From IMG/VR virus record IMGVR_UViG_3300013101_000070, positions 1-26,638 of that record: a stretch of 26,638 bases of DNA; one strand, written 5' to 3'. This document shows positions 5,489 to 24,972 of this stretch, piece after piece. A model generated the notes under the pieces. That model did no database searches. It had not been told where the DNA came from and saw only the letters and a program-made list of their open reading frames with translations. The position numbers were made by a program, and so were the translations under genes. This DNA comes from a virus. The stretch's first letter is position 1; the number at the start of each line of letters is the position of its first letter.

Positions 5489-6049
5489 TTATTCGGTTCT
5501 TAAGAATTCTTCTATATTTAGTCCATACTTAAAGCTGTCCACGTCGTGCACGCCCATCAAGTATAAAACATAAGAAGAAACGCTGCTTCCGCGTCCAACT
5601 CCCCAAACCACATTATTTTCTATAAGGGTATTTATAACAAAAATTAAAGTACGTAACACATCCATTAATTCAAGCTTTTTATATAATTCCAATTCGTCAG
5701 CTACGCGTTGCGCACGAAGTGCTAATTTATCATCGTTTGGGGATTGTTCCATTAATTTTGCCACAACGTATTCTGTAATGTTGATGTTCTTATATTCATC
5801 AGGTATGTGCCAGTCGTATGATAATGGACGTATGTTCTCTTTTATACCAATCCTTTCCGACTTTAACGTTACGCTTCTATTGTATTGTTTAATGTCTGGT
5901 GTTAATTCACTTACATAAAGTCCTTTAGTACTTTTACGATTCAATATAGCATGTAAAAGTTCATCGGCGGTAACCGTCGAATCGCCATCGTACCAAAGAA
6001 GCCTTTCAGTAAGTTCAGTATTAAGAGAAGCTGCTGTCGTAACTTCCAT
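5489..6049 (-). CDS. Short relative of DNA polymerase III alpha subunit
   Basis: The product is 186 aa from the ATG at 6049; an upstream GTG at 6082 lies deeper in the preceding gene and is less likely. The C-terminal part, VWGVGRGSSVSSYVLYLMGV then DVDSFKYGLNIEEFLR, matches the GRGSGAGSLVAY...DP..Y.L.FERFLN region of bacterial DnaE/PolC, which is where the polymerase palm begins. The protein ends straight after this motif, so the catalytic aspartates that follow in a true polymerase are absent. Comparable proteins are annotated in some T4-like phages as polymerase III alpha-like. Its role is unknown; it cannot polymerise alone. It could be a relic, or a domain reused for binding. Confidence 0.7.
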   Translation of the reverse strand: MEVTTAASLNTELTERLLWYDGDSTVTADELLHAILNRKSTKGLYVSELTPDIKQYNRSVTLKSERIGIKENIRPLSYDWHIPDEYKNINITEYVVAKLMEQSPNDDKLALRAQRVADELELYKKLELMDVLRTLIFVINTLIENNVVWGVGRGSSVSSYVLYLMGVHDVDSFKYGLNIEEFLRTE

Positions 6050-6464
6050 CACTAGTGTCCAAATTTGGCGTAGCAGGACCACTAAGGTCTACTGGCGGTT
6101 GTACTGGCATTACTGGCACTGGCGGCTTATCTTGCGCCGTCATAACTTGACCAGCAGGAACCCCACCCGCAGGTGGTGGTGGCGGTGGAATATGCGCAGC
6201 GGTCATTTGATGTGGGTTTCCTTGTACTGGCATAACATTAAATGCGGGGTTACTTGTAGGTTTAATATAGCCTTCAAGCATCTTTGCCAATGCGGATGCA
6301 TCTACCGCAGACTTTGGCTCAATTATACCATCAATCTTTTCGCGTATTAATTTCCATTGGTCGGCAGACGGTGCCCAAGCTTCTGGTTGCAATTCTTCCA
6401 CACCACTAAGCCATGCGCGGAATTCCGCCAGTGTTTGTTTTTTTACTCTTCTCCTACCAGCCAT
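6021..6464 (-). CDS. Conserved phage protein, proline-rich, unknown function (paralogue of the neighbour)
   Basis: The product is 147 aa. The N-terminal 50 residues form a helical module, EFRAWLSGVEEL ... QWKLIREKIDGI, which resembles the N-terminus of the preceding gene product (EYQAWITGLYRG ... LDLIAEMASKIA). The rest is low complexity with PPPPPPAGGVPAG and several MPVQ/PV repeats, likely disordered. It begins at the stop of the upstream gene and its 3' end overlaps the polymerase-III-like gene by 29 bases. I recall the helical module in hypothetical proteins of marine T4-like phages; no function is known to me. Confidence 0.8.
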   Translation of the reverse strand: MAGRRRVKKQTLAEFRAWLSGVEELQPEAWAPSADQWKLIREKIDGIIEPKSAVDASALAKMLEGYIKPTSNPAFNVMPVQGNPHQMTAAHIPPPPPPAGGVPAGQVMTAQDKPPVPVMPVQPPVDLSGPATPNLDTSDGSYDSSFS

Positions 6465-11815: not shown

Positions 11816-12075
11816 AACTATTGGGTTACAAGGCGTTACCCCCGCATGGTTTACGCTGCTATAGCGAAATCACCATAAAATGAGTCATTAGCTGCATTTA
11901 TTTTAAGTTTCTTTCAATTACGGGTGATTGCTTAACCGCGCTGTGGGTTTATCGTCTACACCCTGTCGAATCCAATTCACCCACAAAGTTCATTTGTAGC
12001 ACAATTAGTGTAAGTGGCGGCTTCGAAGCCGCGTCCAAGATTGCTTATTGTCAACCGTTTATTACAGCGATAAAT
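11816..12075 (-). ncRNA. ssrA: Phage-encoded permuted (two-piece) tmRNA
   Basis: tmRNA frees ribosomes stalled on broken mRNA and adds a degradation tag. In minus-strand order: a P2-strand CGCTGT (12064-12069); the acceptor half GGACGCGG with T-arm (12017-12032), acceptor strand CACTTAC (12010-12016) and ACTA (12006-12009); a 21-base spacer; acceptor strand GTGGGTG (11978-11984), which pairs all seven positions with CACTTAC (two G-U); the tmRNA signature GGATTCGAC (11965-11973); a GGG...ACCC segment and ACAGCG (11939-11944), complementary to CGCTGT; then the tag frame. Having the acceptor half before the coding half is the circularly permuted layout of alphaproteobacterial (and some other) tmRNAs. 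The tag AANDSFYGDFAIAA closely resembles the Caulobacter tag AANDNFAEEFAVAA as I recall it. A consensus promoter lies upstream and a strong terminator downstream. Exact mature ends are not visible. No full CCA is encoded, so it would have to be added. Confidence 0.92.
11851..11895 (-). other. tmRNA tag-peptide reading frame
   Basis: Fourteen codons plus TAA, starting at the presumed resume codon GCA, encode AANDSFYGDFAIAA. The AND start and the small hydrophobic -AIAA end are hallmarks of tmRNA tags; the end is the part recognised by ClpXP (usually -LAA or -VAA). Too short to be listed as an ordinary gene. Confidence 0.9.
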
Positions 12076-16018: not shown

Positions 16019-16756
16019 TTACCACTCGTTATCCGCGCGCAGGTGCTGCTCGATATAGTCGCGGTCTTGTGTAAAGATTGGGATTTCATTATCCATCCCA
16101 ACAGCATTAGCACAATACCCACGTTTTTGCCACGTAGGAATATCATTCCAGTTCACGCCGTGCTTACTAAAAAGCATTTCTTGAACTTGGTCAGTATTCT
16201 TGGCTTGTAATTCTTTGTGGGAAAAGTAAAACTGCCCCAACATATTTATGCTATTTCTGGTCGCGTCTTGTTGGCGCCAAACAAAATAGTTCGCTACTTC
16301 GTCTACGGGGAGGTTGTACACGCGCGCGTCAAAGAACGCCCACATATTGTCGGTTACCGTATCGATAATTTGTTGATTAAAGAATGCTGTGCACATGGAT
16401 GCTGAAATGGATACCATCTTTTGAACATTTCCATCAAACCATTGGTCAGTCTTTAACTTACCCCAATCATTTAATAAGATTGAAATTTCGTCAGACTGTG
16501 TGTATGTCAACTTTGCATTTTGAATAGTAGATACTAATTCAAATGCGGTTTTTGACATCGAATCGTGCATACAGTCACTGAACGGGGATGTTCGTTCAAA
16601 GCCGTCGGCGGGGTATTCAATTTTTTGTAACCGTTTGGTCCACGCGTGGAACGCCTTACCATCCAAACGAATGACGACAGGTGTCCTGCGCATGAGTTTG
16701 GTTTTGGTTACACGCTCGTATGCCTTCATACGATTACCAATAGATGTCTTATCCAT
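16019..16756 (-). CDS. tRNA(His) guanylyltransferase-like protein (Thg1/TLP)
   Basis: The product is 245 aa. Thg1-family enzymes add nucleotides in the 3'-to-5' direction: eukaryotic Thg1 adds G-1 to tRNA-His, while bacterial and viral Thg1-like proteins repair truncated tRNA 5' ends. Motifs are RMKAYERV (9-16), VIRLDGKAFHAWT (28-40, metal-binding D32) and YTQSDEISILL (85-95, D89). These are the hallmark residues of the polymerase-like active site. With two tRNAs and a tmRNA in the same window, a 5'-end repair role for phage or host tRNAs is plausible; that link is inference. It overlaps the next gene's start by one base (TAATG). Confidence 0.9.
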   Translation of the reverse strand: MDKTSIGNRMKAYERVTKTKLMRRTPVVIRLDGKAFHAWTKRLQKIEYPADGFERTSPFSDCMHDSMSKTAFELVSTIQNAKLTYTQSDEISILLNDWGKLKTDQWFDGNVQKMVSISASMCTAFFNQQIIDTVTDNMWAFFDARVYNLPVDEVANYFVWRQQDATRNSINMLGQFYFSHKELQAKNTDQVQEMLFSKHGVNWNDIPTWQKRGYCANAVGMDNEIPIFTQDRDYIEQHLRADNEW

Positions 16757-18491: not shown

Positions 18492-19256
18492 TTAAGACTT
18501 TCGGGTATCTTCCGTGGCGATTATCCAATCTCTGACAAAGTCGCTTCGCACAATATCATTTTTGTTGAATTGTACACAGGCAAAGTCGTTCATGCTATGA
18601 AACACATTTAATGCATCTATCATTCCAGATACACCATTTTTCTTACCATCTAAGTCTGTTTGTAAAATATCACCCGTGAATATAATTCTTGAGTTTTTAC
18701 CTACTCTAGTCATGATAGAATTAATTTCATGGAATGTCATATTTTCACCTTCATCGACAATGATAATAGCATTATCCCATGTCAAACCACGAATGAATGA
18801 TGTAACCATAAATTCAATGAGGTGTGCTTCTTTCATATCTCGATAAGATGAATGCTTGCCGACTAAGTCACAAAGTATGTCCTGATAAGGAATTTCATAC
18901 TGTGCAATTTTTTCATCTAAAGTGCCCGGTAAGAATCCTACTTCGCGCGTGGTGACTGCGGAACGTACAATGATAATCTTATTTTGGTTTTTTTGTAGTA
19001 CTTCGTTTAGTGCGAGATACAGCGCAAGAAAAGTTTTGCCAGTTCCTGCGGAGCCGTGTAGGCAGATGTGTTCTTCGTTGAACCAACTATGGAAGACATC
19101 TTCCTGTGCTGGCGTTAGTGGTCGTATTGCTTTTATATCGTGTGTTGTCCAGTGTTTGATTTTCCTTCCTTCCTCCATGGCTTTACCGTTCTGGAATAAT
19201 GCTATGTTAGCATTTGTTAGTTCTTGCCGTTTGTTACTTTGGCGTTTCCTTGACAT
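18492..19256 (-). CDS. phoH: PhoH-like ATPase
   Basis: The product is 254 aa from the ATG at 19256, chosen because GGAGG lies close upstream; an ATG ten codons earlier has no ribosome site. PhoH-family P-loop ATPases are induced by phosphate starvation in bacteria and are frequent in marine phages, where their role (perhaps RNA-related) is unsettled. The Walker A is GSAGTGKT (68-75), the Walker B is AIIIVDEGEN, and the family-typical VRSAVTTREVGFLPGTLDEK and RIIFTGDILQTDL segments are present. It has its own late-like promoter TATAAATA and is preceded by a strong terminator, so it is read alone or as the head of the next unit. Confidence 0.95.
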   Translation of the reverse strand: MSRKRQSNKRQELTNANIALFQNGKAMEEGRKIKHWTTHDIKAIRPLTPAQEDVFHSWFNEEHICLHGSAGTGKTFLALYLALNEVLQKNQNKIIIVRSAVTTREVGFLPGTLDEKIAQYEIPYQDILCDLVGKHSSYRDMKEAHLIEFMVTSFIRGLTWDNAIIIVDEGENMTFHEINSIMTRVGKNSRIIFTGDILQTDLDGKKNGVSGMIDALNVFHSMNDFACVQFNKNDIVRSDFVRDWIIATEDTRKS

Positions 19257-19289
19257 ATATGTCCTCCAAATAGGTGCAAATAACAATTG

Positions 19290-19316: not shown

Positions 19317-19341
19317 AAAAAGGGACGCCGAAGCGCCCCTT
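19317..19341 (-). terminator. Rho-independent terminator after the prkA-yeaH-spoVR operon
   Basis: The minus strand has AAGGGGCGC, a TTCG loop, GCGTCCCTT, and then a T-run. The nine-pair stem with a very stable tetraloop lies about 25 bases after the spoVR stop. Confidence 0.92.
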
Positions 19342-19364: not shown

Positions 19365-20900
19365 TTAATTATCTTCTAAAAATATATCCAATGCTGTATC
19401 TTGGTCATAGTTTTGATACCCCACCCTAATTTCGTCGTTTTCATCAACGGAATCTATCTTAACATCATATCCCCAAAGGAACGAAATGTATCGAAGGGTG
19501 TCAACGGTTGATTCGCGGTCAAGTGGCTTACCATCAACCATATAGTGACGCAGTGTCATACTCCTGTCGCCCCATTTATCTACATCATACACCTGAATGT
19601 CTGGAACTTTATAACCTATATTGTATTGTTTAGCTAAAGCATCCCGAATGTTTTTGTAACCTTTAGTATTATGGATGCCAGTAACTTCCAATTTTGGGTC
19701 GTCTTCATCGTCGCGGACGTTGAACAACTTGAAATCCCTTATAATTTTAGGGGATAAAAATTGCTGTATGAAACTTTCGTCTTTGAAGTTTTCGATTGCC
19801 CACTTTATATTTTTGATGTAATCACCGTTACCAACCCAATCTTGGTTATGGAACCATGCAATATCTTCTTCGGTTGGCTCCATTGAAATTCGTTCGATAT
19901 CCTTATACATCGCCCAACCCAAAGCATATGGATTGATACCACTAAAGTGTGGGTGGTTAAAGTCTGGTTGTTTTACAACCCCCGTATGGGAGTGTAGGAA
20001 TTCCATCATAGCACCATCGGTCATAATACCCTTGTCATACAAGTCATGCATTATTTTATAATGGAAGAATGTTGCACAGCCTTCGTTCATCAACTGCAAC
20101 TGTCTTTGTGGATGGAAGTATTGTGAAATCTTTCGAACGATGCGAATCACTTCACGCTTCCATTCATCAAGACGTGGTGCGTTCTTTTCGATGAAGTACA
20201 AAATATTTTCTTGTGGTTCAGAAGGAAAATGTTCTTCTACGTCTGCAACATCTGTATCACCTTTAGGGATGGTACTCCACAAAACGTTAAGGTTTTGTTG
20301 AACGTATGCATCACGGTCTTTACGATTCTTTTCTTCCGTGGCGGCTGAAATACGCGAAGGTCTACGATACTTATCGACACCATACACTTGCAATGAGTGG
20401 GCAGCATCCAAAACAGCTTCGACTTCATTGACACCATATCTGTCTTCACATTTACGGATGTACTTCTTAGCATATTTAAGATAATCGATAATACCTTCGG
20501 CATCTGTCCATTGCTTAAATAGATAATTGTTCTTAAAGAAAGTATTATGACCAAACGATGCGTGCGCTATTACGAGCGTTTGCATCATCATAGTGTTTTC
20601 TTCCATCAAGTACGCAATACACGGACTGGAATTAATAACGATTTCGTATGCCAATCCCATGCGACCGCGCCTGTAAGCTTCAAGTTCACGAATGAACTGC
20701 TCACCAAATGTCCAGTGGCTATAGAAGATGGGAAGACCAACAGCTGAATAAGCGTCGAGCATTTGCTCGGATGATATGACTTCTAAATGATTAGGATAAA
20801 CATTAAGGTCATACTTTTCCTTCGCAATCGTTTCGATTTCAGCATAAATTTCATTCAACTTATCGAATGTCCATTCTTGTCCTGAATCAACTTTAATCAT
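19365..20900 (-). CDS. spoVR: SpoVR family protein
   Basis: The product is 511 aa, the usual length of SpoVR / E. coli YcgB. SpoVR is needed for spore cortex in Bacillus, and its homologues are co-conserved with PrkA and YeaH in many Gram-negatives; the molecular activity is unclear. Diagnostic text includes EVISSEQMLDAYSAVGLP (40-57), MMMQTLVIAHASFGHNTFFKNN (104-125, read in parts; H113, H118), a HPQRQLQLMNEGCATFFHY segment and NPYALGWAMYKDIER. The protein looks full length and intact. It is the last gene of a three-gene unit, starting on the YeaH stop (TAATG), and ends just before a strong terminator. Confidence 0.95.
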   Translation of the reverse strand: MIKVDSGQEWTFDKLNEIYAEIETIAKEKYDLNVYPNHLEVISSEQMLDAYSAVGLPIFYSHWTFGEQFIRELEAYRRGRMGLAYEIVINSSPCIAYLMEENTMMMQTLVIAHASFGHNTFFKNNYLFKQWTDAEGIIDYLKYAKKYIRKCEDRYGVNEVEAVLDAAHSLQVYGVDKYRRPSRISAATEEKNRKDRDAYVQQNLNVLWSTIPKGDTDVADVEEHFPSEPQENILYFIEKNAPRLDEWKREVIRIVRKISQYFHPQRQLQLMNEGCATFFHYKIMHDLYDKGIMTDGAMMEFLHSHTGVVKQPDFNHPHFSGINPYALGWAMYKDIERISMEPTEEDIAWFHNQDWVGNGDYIKNIKWAIENFKDESFIQQFLSPKIIRDFKLFNVRDDEDDPKLEVTGIHNTKGYKNIRDALAKQYNIGYKVPDIQVYDVDKWGDRSMTLRHYMVDGKPLDRESTVDTLRYISFLWGYDVKIDSVDENDEIRVGYQNYDQDTALDIFLEDN

Positions 20901-22210
20901 TATACTTCTCGTTTTTCAAATAGTTTTCTAAACACAGGGTAGATTTCGGTTACGTCATTAACAATCGACATTTCCATTTTCTTCGAATTAGCTTTTACGC
21001 TTTCGTATGGTCCCCAAAGGTCGCTTTCGCCTGCGGCTCTGCGTTGGTCAACTTCAACATAAGCGAAGTATTGACTTAACGGCAAAATTTTATTCTGCAA
21101 AACTTCAACGGCATTGACATTATCTTCGTACCAGTTATCACCGTCTGAAATTTGGCATCCGAAAATGTTCCAAGATTCAACAGGATATCGGTCTTTAATA
21201 ACTTCATGCATTAATTCTAACGCAGATGAAACAATCGTACCACCTGTTTCTTTGGAATGGAAGAATTCATCTTCGTCAACTTCCTTAGCCTGCATGTGGT
21301 GCCGTATCCAAACAATATCTACACGTTCGTAATTGTAATGCAAGAATAATAACATAAGCATGAAGAAACGTTTTGCCATTTCCTTTTCCCATTCACCCAT
21401 GGAAGCAGATACATCCATAATACCAAACATGACAGCCTGTGTCGTCGGTATAGGGACTTTCTCCCAACGATTGTAACGTAAGTCCATGTCGTCGAGGAAT
21501 GGAATAGCTTTGATTTGACGTTTAACGGTAGCAATTAACTTTTCAAGTTCTGCAATACGCGTGGTGATTTCGGCGTCTTTTTCTTCATCGTATGTTGTTA
21601 CCGAATCTTTTAGTAATTTGAGTTCAGCTTCATACTTCTTCAGCTTTCTCTTCTTCGGTGAGCGCAGACCAATCTTTCTTCCACGCGCCTGACGCATGGA
21701 TTGCTTGATGTTAAGTCTGCTTTGGTTACCGTCTACAGAGAAGCCAGCACGCTGCATTTCCCATTCATCCAACTTAGCGATATTCTTTTTAATCATATCG
21801 GGTAGTTCAAGGTCTTCAAAGAACAAGTCAAGGAATTCTTCTTTGGTTAATGAAAAGGAAAATTCGTCTTCGCCTATTCCATCTTTGGAACCTTTCTTAC
21901 CACCAGTGCCGCCTCCACCTTCTTCTGGTCGTGGTATGCGGTCGCCTTGGTTAAAGTCTTTGTTGCCGGGGCGGACAGTGTCTCTAACACCTCCGTCTTT
22001 GCTGTGTCCAAAGGTAGGTTGATTCAACCCCTTGCCGGGAATTTTAATCTTCTTATCCTTGCTATTAACGATGTCGCCAATCTTACCATCACGGATAACA
22101 TCTTTGACGGCATCGTTAACTTGTTGTTTGACACGTTTTAGAAAGCGCTGTCGATTGGTAGTACTCTTACCTTTCGAGTTTTTACGTCTGTCTATAATAA
22201 TATGTGACAT
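20900..22210 (-). CDS. yeaH: YeaH/YhbH family protein (DUF444, VWA-like)
   Basis: The product is 436 aa, matching E. coli YeaH (427 aa). The N-terminus is basic (RRKNSKGKSTTNRQRFLKR), followed by a glycine-rich, flexible stretch (about 97-113, GGGGTGGKKGSKDG). The C-terminal half is a VWA-type fold with the MIDAS sequence DVSASM (D266, S268, S270) and GGTIVSSALELMHEVI. YeaH acts with the PrkA/YeaG kinase in stress and starvation responses. It lies between prkA and spoVR, with AAGGA eight bases before its ATG. It is complete, with no sign of decay. Confidence 0.95.
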   Translation of the reverse strand: MSHIIIDRRKNSKGKSTTNRQRFLKRVKQQVNDAVKDVIRDGKIGDIVNSKDKKIKIPGKGLNQPTFGHSKDGGVRDTVRPGNKDFNQGDRIPRPEEGGGGTGGKKGSKDGIGEDEFSFSLTKEEFLDLFFEDLELPDMIKKNIAKLDEWEMQRAGFSVDGNQSRLNIKQSMRQARGRKIGLRSPKKRKLKKYEAELKLLKDSVTTYDEEKDAEITTRIAELEKLIATVKRQIKAIPFLDDMDLRYNRWEKVPIPTTQAVMFGIMDVSASMGEWEKEMAKRFFMLMLLFLHYNYERVDIVWIRHHMQAKEVDEDEFFHSKETGGTIVSSALELMHEVIKDRYPVESWNIFGCQISDGDNWYEDNVNAVEVLQNKILPLSQYFAYVEVDQRRAAGESDLWGPYESVKANSKKMEMSIVNDVTEIYPVFRKLFEKREV

Positions 22211-22251
22211 TTTTGTTTCCTTAATAATTAAAGTTAGGGTTAAGCCTGCTC

Positions 22252-24234
22252 TTAATTATTTTTGGAATAACGTAAGAACCAATCAACTAACCGTCTGACT
22301 TGCTTTTCGGTGTATCCTTTCCTCATCATACGGGATACGAAGTCGTCGTGCTTATCCTGTTCGTCAGATGTCTGCTTTTCTTGGAAAGAAATAACTGGTA
22401 ACAGTTCTTCGGTATTAGCAAACATTTTCTTTTCGATAACATCGCGAAGTTTCTGATAGCTTGTCCAGTCAGGATTGTTGCCGCTGTTGTTTTGTGATGC
22501 ACGTAATACGAACATAACAACTTCATTACGGAAATCCTTTGGATTGCTAATACCAGCTGGTTTTTCAATTTTTTCAAGTTCATCGTTCAATGTATCACGG
22601 TCGAACATGGTACCAGTGTCGTCATCGCGATAATCTTTATCTTGAATCCAGAAGCCAGCCAATTGAATGTATCGGTCAAATAAGTTCTGACCATAGTCAT
22701 GGTATGATTCCAAGTATGCCTTTTGAAGTTCGTCTTCAAGGAATTCAGCATAGCGAGGTTGTAGTTCGCCTTTAATGAACCCGATACGGATTTCTTCTTC
22801 TTCCTGACCAAATTGTTCTTGCAGAATTTGCTGTTCCAAAACATACATAAGGTGGATTGGGTCAGCCGCAATTTCATTTGAGTCGTAGTTAAAGACCTTA
22901 GATAAAATTTTGAATGCGAATCGCGTAGATGAACCAGCCATGCCTTCTGTGACACCTGCAACTTCTTTGTATTCGTCGATAGACTTTGCGGACGGGTCAG
23001 TATCTTTCAGATTCTTACCGTCGTATGTTTCCATCTTAGAATACGTGCTGCTGTTTTCTGGACGAAGTAAACGGGTTAAGATTGAATACTGTGCCATCAT
23101 ATCGATGGTGCCCGGTGCACAAGGTGCGTTTGCCAGTTCGGAATTCGCAATTAACTTGTCGTAAATTAACGCTTCTTCTGTAACACGTAAGACATAAGGC
23201 ACTTTGACGATGTTAACACGGTCAAGGAACGCTTCGTTCTTTTTATCGTTACGGAATGTTGTCCACTCAGATTCGTTACTGTGAGCAAGGATTAATCCAC
23301 TAAATGGGATAGCACCAAACTGTTCAGTACCGTTGTAGTGACCTTCCTGTGTAGCAGTAAGTAATGGGTGAAGCATCTTGATAGGTGCTTTAAACATTTC
23401 CACGAATTCCATGATACCTTGAGAAGCAACGTTCAAGCCGCCTACCCAATTGTATGCATCGGGGTCGTTCTGGTCGTGGTCTTCCAAGTCACTGATGTTA
23501 ACCTTACCAACCAAAGAAGAAATGTCTTGGTTGTTTTCATCACCGGGTTCAACCTTAGTGATTGCAATTTGTTGCAAGATATCAGGCCAAATTTTAACAA
23601 CTTGGAATGTAGTGATGTCGCCTTCAGCTTCCTGTAAACGTTTAACTGCCCATGGTGACATGATGTATTTCAAGTAACGCTTAGGGATGCCGTAGTCAGC
23701 TAAGATGTCGGCACTGTCTTCTGCTACATCGAATAAACCCATTGGTGATTCGAACAGTGGAGAAATTTCCCAAAAGCCTTCGCCAGTATCTTTACCATCA
23801 CGGTCTAAGTTTTTGTTCCATGCCTTCAATGTATAGATAGGCATTTTCTGCATCAGCTCTTTCAAGCGTTCAGCAATGGATGACTTACCGCCACCAACTG
23901 GACCTAAAAGATATAAGATTTGGTTTTCTTCTTCAAGAGATTGTGCGGCGTGGGTTAAGAACGAAACAACATCTTCAATCGTATTTTCCATTCCATAGAA
24001 GTCGGAGAATGCAGGATACGTTTTAATTTTACGGTTTGTGAAAATTCTACTTAGACGTTCATCGTCGCGAGTGTCTACTACGGTAGCATCGCCAATTGCC
24101 ATTAATAGGCGTTCCGAAGTTGATGCGTACATCCCTTTGTCATCTTGACAGCCTTCAAGATATTCGACCAAAGTCATTTCTTCGGGTTGTTTAACTGTGT
24201 ATCGGTTCTGATACTTTTCAAATACGTTGCTCAT
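22252..24234 (-). CDS. prkA: PrkA-type serine protein kinase (YeaG-like)
   Basis: The product is 660 aa from the ATG at 24234 (MSNVFEKYQNRY), chosen because AGAGG lies upstream; 24 further codons are open but have no ribosome site. The E. coli homologue YeaG is 644 aa. The N-terminal AAA-like domain has Walker A GPVGGGKS (111-118). The region around residues 200-460 has the PrkA pattern (GLFDV, LLTATQEGHYNGTEQFGAIPFSGLILAHSNESEW in parts, FLDRVNIVKVPYVLRV). The C-terminal domain carries the kinase/protease-like part of the family. In bacteria it responds to nitrogen or carbon stress. A consensus TTGACA-17-TATAGT promoter precedes it, which suggests early expression by host polymerase. Confidence 0.95.
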   Translation of the reverse strand: MSNVFEKYQNRYTVKQPEEMTLVEYLEGCQDDKGMYASTSERLLMAIGDATVVDTRDDERLSRIFTNRKIKTYPAFSDFYGMENTIEDVVSFLTHAAQSLEEENQILYLLGPVGGGKSSIAERLKELMQKMPIYTLKAWNKNLDRDGKDTGEGFWEISPLFESPMGLFDVAEDSADILADYGIPKRYLKYIMSPWAVKRLQEAEGDITTFQVVKIWPDILQQIAITKVEPGDENNQDISSLVGKVNISDLEDHDQNDPDAYNWVGGLNVASQGIMEFVEMFKAPIKMLHPLLTATQEGHYNGTEQFGAIPFSGLILAHSNESEWTTFRNDKKNEAFLDRVNIVKVPYVLRVTEEALIYDKLIANSELANAPCAPGTIDMMAQYSILTRLLRPENSSTYSKMETYDGKNLKDTDPSAKSIDEYKEVAGVTEGMAGSSTRFAFKILSKVFNYDSNEIAADPIHLMYVLEQQILQEQFGQEEEEIRIGFIKGELQPRYAEFLEDELQKAYLESYHDYGQNLFDRYIQLAGFWIQDKDYRDDDTGTMFDRDTLNDELEKIEKPAGISNPKDFRNEVVMFVLRASQNNSGNNPDWTSYQKLRDVIEKKMFANTEELLPVISFQEKQTSDEQDKHDDFVSRMMRKGYTEKQVRRLVDWFLRYSKNN

Positions 24235-24277
24235 ATCGCCTCTTTTTTGGTTTGTGATTTCATTTAATTGTGTAGAA

Positions 24278-24306
24278 ACTATATAGTAATTTTTTTGGTA
24301 TGTCAA
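24278..24306 (-). promoter_or_regulatory. Sigma70-like promoter of the prkA operon
   Basis: The minus strand has -35 TTGACA (24301-24306), 17 bases, and -10 TATAGT (24278-24283), followed by a leader of about 40 bases. Confidence 0.85.
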
Positions 24307-24384: not shown

Positions 24385-24972
24385 TTACGAAGATTTTATT
24401 TTTAACTTATCTAACACTTCGCGCTCGTCAGTAAGGTTTCGTTCATTGGCATCTTCATTCGAAAAACCATCTTTATATCTGGCTTTATCTGACTTCAAAA
24501 GTTTCTGTGCATTAACTTCCAAAATGTCATCCCACTTAATACCAGCTGCATCACAAAAGATTGCTTGGTACCAATTTAGGTCGCCGAACTCTTCACCGAT
24601 GTTTACTAAGTCCATGTCTGCGCCATTAAATTCTAACGCTTCGAGTAGTTCGACTGATTCCGTTGCTGCGCCTAATAGTGCATGGAAGATGCGGGGGTCA
24701 ATATCTAATGTTGTTTCTGCGTCGGATAAGTCATCAACAGTTAACATAGATAGTGTAGTGAGATTTTTTCCTACTGTTACAATGTTGTGGTCAATTGCTG
24801 CGTAATTATATTCGCGATTATAAAAAGCGTGCTTCTTAATCTGGTCAAGAATGTTGCCAGTTGCGATATGCATGGAAAGGATTTGGGTTAAAAATTGTTT
24901 GTTTACTTTTACTTCGTCGATAGTGCTTTCCGTAGAAACTGCACCCGCAACGTATTCGTCAAGTCTTGACAT
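24385..24972 (-). CDS. MazG-like NTP pyrophosphohydrolase
   Basis: The product is 195 aa. The metal-binding ExxE...ExxD pattern of all-alpha NTP pyrophosphatases is present: ESVEL (E105, E108) and GEEFGDLNWYQ (E128, D131). The NAQKLLKSDKARYKDGFSNEDANER tail (read in parts) is typical of phage MazG-like proteins. These hydrolyse (d)NTPs, possibly to recycle nucleotides or to lower ppGpp-type alarm signals; the exact substrate cannot be told. AGAGG lies nine bases before the ATG. The AATAACAATAATAA leader motif is upstream. About 150 bases separate it from prkA. Confidence 0.85.
   Translation of the reverse strand: MSRLDEYVAGAVSTESTIDEVKVNKQFLTQILSMHIATGNILDQIKKHAFYNREYNYAAIDHNIVTVGKNLTTLSMLTVDDLSDAETTLDIDPRIFHALLGAATESVELLEALEFNGADMDLVNIGEEFGDLNWYQAIFCDAAGIKWDDILEVNAQKLLKSDKARYKDGFSNEDANERNLTDEREVLDKLKIKSS

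What the first reader, a model, noticed from the sequence alone, without database searches (positions are those of the whole stretch)
19365..24306. Complete PrkA-YeaH-SpoVR stress cassette in a phage
All three host-type genes are full length, in one unit with a consensus promoter and a strong TTCG-loop terminator. In bacteria prkA/yeaG and yeaH adjoin and spoVR is co-conserved; together they act in starvation and stress survival. A phage keeping all three intact (almost 5 kb) suggests they benefit infection of starved or slow-growing hosts, and the sigma70-like promoter suggests early use.
Basis: partly seen in the sequence, partly recalled or inferred. Interest (0 to 1): 0.7.

Follow-up and report, generated by a model that had tools for sequence, protein, structure and literature searches.

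The report
Bacterial starvation-response operon inside jumbo phages
A virus of bacteria carries a complete three-gene bacterial starvation-survival operon with its own promoter and terminator, and several separate lineages of very large phages have captured and kept the same three genes, which suggests they use it to control the state of the infected cell.

Summary
Window 19365-24306 (minus strand) encodes full-length PrkA/YeaG, YeaH (DUF444) and SpoVR with catalytic motifs intact. A TTGACA-17-TATAGT promoter precedes them and a TTCG-loop terminator follows. One correction: the 684-aa PrkA start (TTG 24306) lies in the -35 box; the real start is ATG 24234 (660 aa).

It is not a one-phage curiosity. 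The window belongs to an XacN1/RsoM2USA-type jumbo-myophage lineage (nine sampled members, same gene order). The same operon occurs in a second jumbo-phage group and in ~640-kb huge phages. A divergent version occurs in Thermus phages and a 595-kb huge phage. In 175 of 237 viral loci all three genes stand in one order; nearly all exceptions are contig ends or host DNA at prophage edges.

The three protein trees recover the same clades, so the genes moved together. An AU test rejects one phage origin, so there were at least two captures. Purifying selection is strong (dN/dS 0.03-0.08). SpoVR is predicted to have a gluzincin-like fold and YeaH a vWA fold with MIDAS.

Most likely it is an AAA+/vWA/SpoVR protein-remodelling set that holds the infected cell in a quiescent state. 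Function, timing and host are untested.

The parts
22252..24234 (-). prkA/yeaG CDS (660 aa from ATG 24234): AAA+ ATPase with PrkA C-terminal domain
   Evidence: Pfam PF08298 529.5 bits and PF06798 215.1 bits; NCBIfam NF011999 1104.6 bits. In the 684-aa numbering: Walker A GPVGGGKS 135-142 and K466, the counterpart of E. coli K426.
20900..22210 (-). yeaH (DUF444) CDS, 436 aa: vWA-fold protein with complete MIDAS (D266, S268, S270, T325, D356)
   Evidence: PF04285 538.4 bits; invariant MIDAS residues; AF2 model matches vWA domains, Z up to 18.6
19365..20900 (-). spoVR/ycgB CDS, 511 aa: gluzincin-like fold predicted; invariant H113, H118, E273
   Evidence: PF04293 530.1 bits and PF24755 75 bits; AF2 pLDDT 84.5, pTM 0.84; VIA-align top rows are M1, M32, M3-type and M61 metallopeptidases, Z 7-12
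24278..24306 (-). sigma70-type promoter TTGACA-N17-TATAGT
   Evidence: 11 of 12 consensus, 1% of shuffles; conserved upstream of prkA in most group-A relatives
24239..24243 (-). ribosome-binding site AGAGG, 4 nt before ATG 24234
   Evidence: read directly from the sequence
19320..19341 (-). intrinsic terminator, 9-bp stem, TTCG loop, T-rich tail
   Evidence: stem-loops in the same place in most group-A relatives
24385..24972 (-). MazG-like gene upstream (phage neighbour; same place in most group-A contigs)
   Evidence: phrog_229 E 4.9e-30; synteny
18492..19286 (-). phoH gene downstream (phage neighbour)
   Evidence: PF02562 170.9 bits; synteny in group A

Best explanation
A complete bacterial PrkA-YeaH-SpoVR operon was captured as one unit by the ancestor of an XacN1/RsoM2USA-like jumbo-myophage lineage and has been kept functional (shown by sequence). 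It is probably transcribed by host sigma70 RNA polymerase together with the phage's early or middle genes (inferred from the promoter). PrkA is an AAA+ motor, YeaH a vWA/MIDAS adaptor and SpoVR a protein with a predicted gluzincin-like fold; together they most likely form an ATP-driven protein-remodelling or processing set (inferred from domains, motifs and co-inheritance). During infection it most likely reproduces what the host copy does in starvation: lower metabolism, keep toxin-antitoxin genes down and sustain the RpoS programme. The cell then stays alive and supplied through a long infection, or through an infection begun in a starved host (inferred from E. coli work).
For: Intact genes with family-defining motifs. 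Conserved promoter and terminator. Same gene order in 175 of 237 viral loci, 86 of them distinct. PrkA, YeaH and SpoVR trees recover the same clades. dN/dS 0.03-0.08 where dS is not saturated. A single phage origin is rejected, so the set was captured more than once. Inteins at one identical SpoVR site in two distant phage groups. [quoted passage not shown] yeaG represses the mqsRA and dinJ-yafQ modules and supports rpoS (PMC4664914); YeaGH is described as a metabolic brake and the K426A variant as catalytically deleterious (PMC10954441). The isolated relative RsoM2USA, which carries SpoVR and PrkA, has a 270-min latent period against 90 min for XacN1 (PMC8504454), and XacN1 lacks the genes. 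Replication of the related phage Paride in dormant cells depends on host RpoS and (p)ppGpp (PMC10761892).
Against: No expression, timing or phenotype data for any phage copy. The latent-period contrast is one pair of phages with different hosts. Paride replicates in dormant cells without the cassette. A metabolic brake could hurt rather than help phage yield. Physical assembly of the three proteins is not demonstrated in any paper found here. The divergent Thermus-phage PrkA proteins lack the lysine that matters in E. coli YeaG.
Confidence: 0.5

Rival explanations
1. The cassette is a machine for the phage's own proteins: the AAA+/vWA/SpoVR set remodels or processes phage structural or replication proteins, and host physiology is not its target.
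For: In Thermus phage Lalka8 the three genes sit between the portal/minor head genes and terminase, and in phiYS40 they lie near terminase. The huge phage LR745206 carries dnaK and group-B contigs carry EF-G or peptide deformylase close by.
Against: In the window's lineage the operon lies among nucleotide-metabolism and replication genes behind a sigma70-type promoter, not in a late cluster. The bacterial orthologues act without phage proteins.
Confidence: 0.17
2. Counter-defence: the cassette keeps host toxin-antitoxin modules silent or clears activated toxins, so that infection is not aborted.
For: E. [quoted passage not shown] Capture has recurred in unrelated phages.
Against: That effect was seen for only two toxin-antitoxin modules, in nitrogen starvation, and the mechanism is unknown. 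No PADLOC defence model fits the proteins beyond one marginal AAA match, E 0.009.
Confidence: 0.13
3. Passenger cargo: host genes picked up by large-genome phages and carried without benefit.
For: Jumbo phages carry many host-like genes. Some related jumbo phages (XacN1, Stenotrophomonas CM1 and RAS14) do without the set.
Against: Strong purifying selection on all three genes, G+C matching the phage genome, repeated capture of the same three genes and a conserved promoter.
Confidence: 0.08
4. The contig is bacterial or chimeric and the cassette is ordinary host DNA.
For: Some database cases are exactly that: Enterobacter phage LAU1, IMG/VR contigs L010 and L017, and E. coli prophage contigs with yeaH at one edge.
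Against: The window is phage on both sides (clamp loader, UvsW, primase, PhoH, MazG). Relatives from other samples share its order, and records up to 363 kb carry gp23 capsid and terminase genes.
Confidence: 0.01

Closest known systems
Ralstonia jumbo phage RsoM2USA ORF28-ORF30 (PMC8504454)
   Same: Isolated XacN1-related jumbo phage annotated with SpoVR (ORF28) and PrkA (ORF30), both on the minus strand, with a ~1.36-kb gap of YeaH size between them.
   Different: The paper lists the genes in separate functional classes and does not recognise an operon; ORF29 is not named. Its record was not in the collections here, so YeaH there is inferred.
Bacterial PrkA-YeaH-SpoVR operon (Pseudomonas, Thiothrix, Alphaproteobacteria) and E. 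coli yeaGH plus ycgB
   Same: Same three families; same order and strand in the sampled non-enterobacterial Pseudomonadota.
   Different: Chromosomal starvation/stress genes. In Enterobacteriaceae SpoVR is not next to yeaGH. The phage copy has lower G+C than most bacterial copies compared and a phage-type promoter.
Thermus phage vWA-SpoVR-PrkA cluster (phiYS40, phiLo, MN1, Lalka)
   Same: All three families clustered in a phage.
   Different: About 25% identical in PrkA, different gene order, D or N in place of the lysine conserved elsewhere; a separate lineage.
MoxR-type AAA+/vWA pairs such as RavA-ViaA (from general knowledge)
   Same: An AAA+ ATPase encoded beside a vWA/MIDAS protein.
   Different: PrkA is a different AAA+ clade with its own C-terminal domain; SpoVR has no counterpart there. 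Analogy only, not tested.

Membership tests
PrkA/YeaG | AAA_PrkA domain plus PrkA C-terminal domain over full length, Walker A | tested here: met
   529.5 and 215.1 bits, equivalog 1104.6 bits, GPVGGGKS
PrkA/YeaG | Lysine equivalent to E. coli K426 | tested here: met
   K466 (684-aa numbering); K in all sampled phage groups A, B and C; D or N in Thermus phages, LR756511 and one divergent bacterium
PrkA/YeaG | Kinase, protease or ATPase activity | not testable with these tools
   Activity is disputed in bacteria (PMC13001217 found none)
YeaH (DUF444) | Full-length DUF444 profile and vWA MIDAS residues DxSxS, T, D | tested here: met
SpoVR/YcgB | SpoVR and SpoVR_C domains, equivalog level | tested here: met
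Gluzincin metallopeptidase | Gluzincin-type fold | tested here: inconclusive
   Best VIA-align rows are almost all M1, M32, M3-type and M61 peptidases, Z 7-12, about 180-200 residues; Foldseek alone had no E<0.001
Gluzincin metallopeptidase | HExxH catalytic motif | tested here: not met
   The window has HASFGH (113-118) and NEG with E273: possible metal ligands, but no catalytic E after the first H, and an extra residue
XacN1/RsoM2USA-like jumbo phages | Shared replication-gene order and capsid/terminase of that clade | tested here: met
   Clamp loader, DnaE fragment and UvsW in the XacN1 order, 43-45% identity; gp23 and terminase on longer relatives, since the window itself is a fragment
PrkA-YeaH-SpoVR operon | All three genes adjacent, same order, one promoter | tested here: met
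MoxR-vWA chaperone systems | MoxR-family AAA+ ATPase | not tested
   No MoxR profile among the Pfam matches of PrkA at E<0.001, but no dedicated comparison was made

The most novel reading that the evidence does not exclude
Several unrelated lineages of large phages have independently captured the whole PrkA-YeaH-SpoVR operon as a dedicated 'quiescence module' that sets the physiological state of the infected cell (a virus-imposed hibernation or slow-infection programme).
Probability: 0.35. Interest if true: 0.75.

Novelty: new variant of a known kind. Interest (0 to 1): 0.52.

Why it matters
The biochemical job of the widespread PrkA-YeaH-SpoVR set is unknown in bacteria. Repeated capture by phages suggests that the three genes are a self-sufficient unit that works outside its usual regulation, and gives natural versions to study. 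It would also offer a genetic handle on how phages deal with starved or dormant hosts, the usual state of bacteria in nature. A search of the open literature held here found no paper treating the trio as a phage module; only scattered annotations exist.

Tried and rejected
Bacterial or chimeric contig: rejected for the window by synteny and phage hallmark genes in independent relatives. Database hits that are not true cargo were set aside: Enterobacter phage LAU1 and L010 (Citrobacter/Enterobacter-like yeaGH at a contig end), L017 (integrase beside a betaproteobacterial operon) and E. coli prophage contigs beginning in yeaH. One phage origin for all copies: rejected for groups A+B (p 1.8e-6) and A+B+C (p 6.4e-6) on a set without the longest branch, p 0.017 on the larger set; A+C as one clade is not rejected (p 0.61 and 0.058). 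Known anti-phage defence family: no. Foldseek alone gave no significant PDB match for SpoVR. Empty-site comparison: in XacN1 mazG and phoH lie 2.7 kb apart on opposite strands with other genes between, so the insertion point is not exact. Bacterial sampling was limited to Pseudomonadota, so the donor cannot be named. RsoM2USA and the phiYS40 paper could not be opened.

Full report
What is there. The window is a 26,638-base IMG/VR virus record. On its minus strand, 24306-19365, lie PrkA, YeaH and SpoVR, all full length and above the curated cut-offs of Pfam and NCBIfam. The first-listed PrkA start (TTG 24306) is inside the promoter; the homologous start is ATG 24234 behind AGAGG, giving 660 aa. 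A TTGACA-17-TATAGT promoter precedes it and a 9-bp TTCG terminator follows SpoVR. The promoter is found 38-49 nt before the PrkA start in most relatives, as more than chance matches. The general promoter and terminator counts in the region are at or below shuffle level, so only these conserved sites carry weight.

Whose genome. Clamp loader, UvsW, primase, PhoH, MazG and ClpP-like genes surround the cassette. UvsW and clamp loader are closest to Stenotrophomonas phages CM1 and RAS14, Xanthomonas phage XacN1 and the PA5oct/Paride group, and XacN1 has the same local gene order. Nine contigs including the window (group A) share hnh-mazG-prkA-yeaH-spoVR-phoH-thg1-thyA-DHFR in whole or part. Of them, G002 (363 kb), G005 and G007 carry clear gp23 capsid and terminase genes, and G004 a clear gp23. 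The isolated phage RsoM2USA, of the XacN1 clade, is annotated with SpoVR and PrkA (PMC8504454). XacN1 itself has none of the three.

How widespread. Beyond group A, the operon occurs in group B (jumbo phages up to 342 kb with gp23 and terminase) and group C (huge phages LR745206, LR756502, LR756504 and relatives). In LR756502 SpoVR lies about 240 kb from the pair. Divergent versions occur in LR756511 and the Thermus phages. In three IMG/VR scans, 175 of 237 loci hold all three genes in the same order (86 distinct by YeaH). The remainder are contig ends, E. coli-type prophage contigs starting in yeaH, and one real exception, L298. Loci from different scans overlap, so 86 is the better count.

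One unit, more than one capture. Trees of the three proteins on the same 82 taxa each recover groups A, B, C, the beta/gamma-proteobacteria and A+C+beta/gamma as clades; pairwise distance correlations are 0.86-0.88. The three genes therefore travelled together. On concatenated data, a single clade A+B is rejected at p 1.8e-6 and A+B+C at p 6.4e-6 (p 0.017 for A+B+C on the larger set). A+C is not rejected. The capsid tree instead joins A with B (support 89). So at least two captures occurred, plus the separate Thermus-type lineage. Group A is sister to, not inside, the sampled beta/gamma sequences, so the donor is unresolved; only Pseudomonadota were sampled.

Kept working. dN/dS among group-A pairs is 0.03-0.08 where dS is not saturated, and G+C (0.40-0.41) matches the phage. 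PrkA keeps Walker A and the lysine whose loss is described as catalytically deleterious in E. coli YeaG. YeaH keeps all MIDAS residues, and its AF2 model matches vWA domains, Z up to 18.6 over about 160 residues. SpoVR keeps H113, H118 and E273 in every row of alignment A1. Its model (pLDDT 84.5) gives as best VIA-align rows almost only gluzincin metallopeptidases, Z 7-12 over about 180-200 residues. The HExxH catalytic glutamate is missing, so peptidase activity is not claimed. Inteins sit at the identical NEG|C site next to E273 in L002 (group A) and LR756504 (group C), and another before the serine aligned to window position 53 in L275. Inteins favour functionally central motifs (general knowledge), which fits E273 being part of the working site.

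How it may work. In E. coli, yeaG and yeaH act together, quiesce metabolism in nitrogen starvation, repress two toxin-antitoxin modules and support rpoS (PMC4664914, PMC10954441). B. anthracis PrkA is an AAA+ protein without detectable kinase or protease activity (PMC13001217). The simplest model is that AAA+ PrkA, vWA YeaH and SpoVR form a protein-remodelling set, and that the phage supplies it to impose or prolong a quiescent, stress-tolerant cell state. Two outside hints agree, both weak. RsoM2USA has a latent period of 270 min against 90 min for XacN1. Replication of the related phage Paride in dormant cells needs host RpoS and (p)ppGpp (PMC10761892), although Paride itself lacks the set. 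Assembly of the complex, its substrates and its timing in infection are inference.

Verdict. Observation confirmed; interpretation partly supported. The gene families are known and single annotations in phages exist, so this is a new variant of a known kind. The new points are its recurrence as an intact three-gene unit in several large-phage lineages, co-inheritance, more than one capture, and inteins in phage SpoVR.

Noticed in passing
window 11851-12069 (-): Permuted tmRNA gene (Rfam RF04321, 87.7 bits against cut-off 47), apparent tag (A)ANDSFYGDFAIAA, with a TTGACA-17-TATAGT promoter at 12125-12097; ARAGORN missed it. Also in group-A relatives L009 and L260.
   Followed up: partly
L002 11280-14051; L166 14513-16420; L275 6989-9247: Inteins inside SpoVR: homologous ones at the same NEG|C site in L002 (with LAGLIDADG domain) and huge phage LR756504 (mini-intein), and a different one near SpoVR residue 53 in L275, whose SpoVR appears to be the same sequence as in L279 and L345.
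   Followed up: partly
L019 12994-15063: A group-B jumbo-phage contig encodes a full translation elongation factor G directly downstream of spoVR.
   Followed up: no
L164 1585-3459 and 13646-14182; L043 15836-16399 and 14992-15897: DnaK and NusG near the trio in huge phage LR745206; peptide deformylase and a cation-efflux protein near it in group-B phage L043.
   Followed up: no
window 16019-16756 (-): Thg1-like tRNA-His guanylyltransferase gene (PF04446, 91.8 bits).
   Followed up: no
window 5489-6082 (-): Short fragment-like gene matching the DNA polymerase III alpha domain (PF07733); XacN1 has a counterpart at the same place.
   Followed up: no
L370-L394 and others; Enterobacter phage LAU1 record start: Many prophage contigs begin in host yeaH (LAU1 in yeaG), which suggests an integration site next to yeaGH in enterobacteria and inflates counts of 'phage' yeaH.
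   Followed up: partly
phrog_22605, phrog_19072, phrog_35217: PHROG families listed as unknown function can be named PrkA, YeaH and SpoVR.
   Followed up: yes
L298: Only locus with SpoVR and 1.8 kb of upstream DNA but no adjacent YeaH.
   Followed up: no
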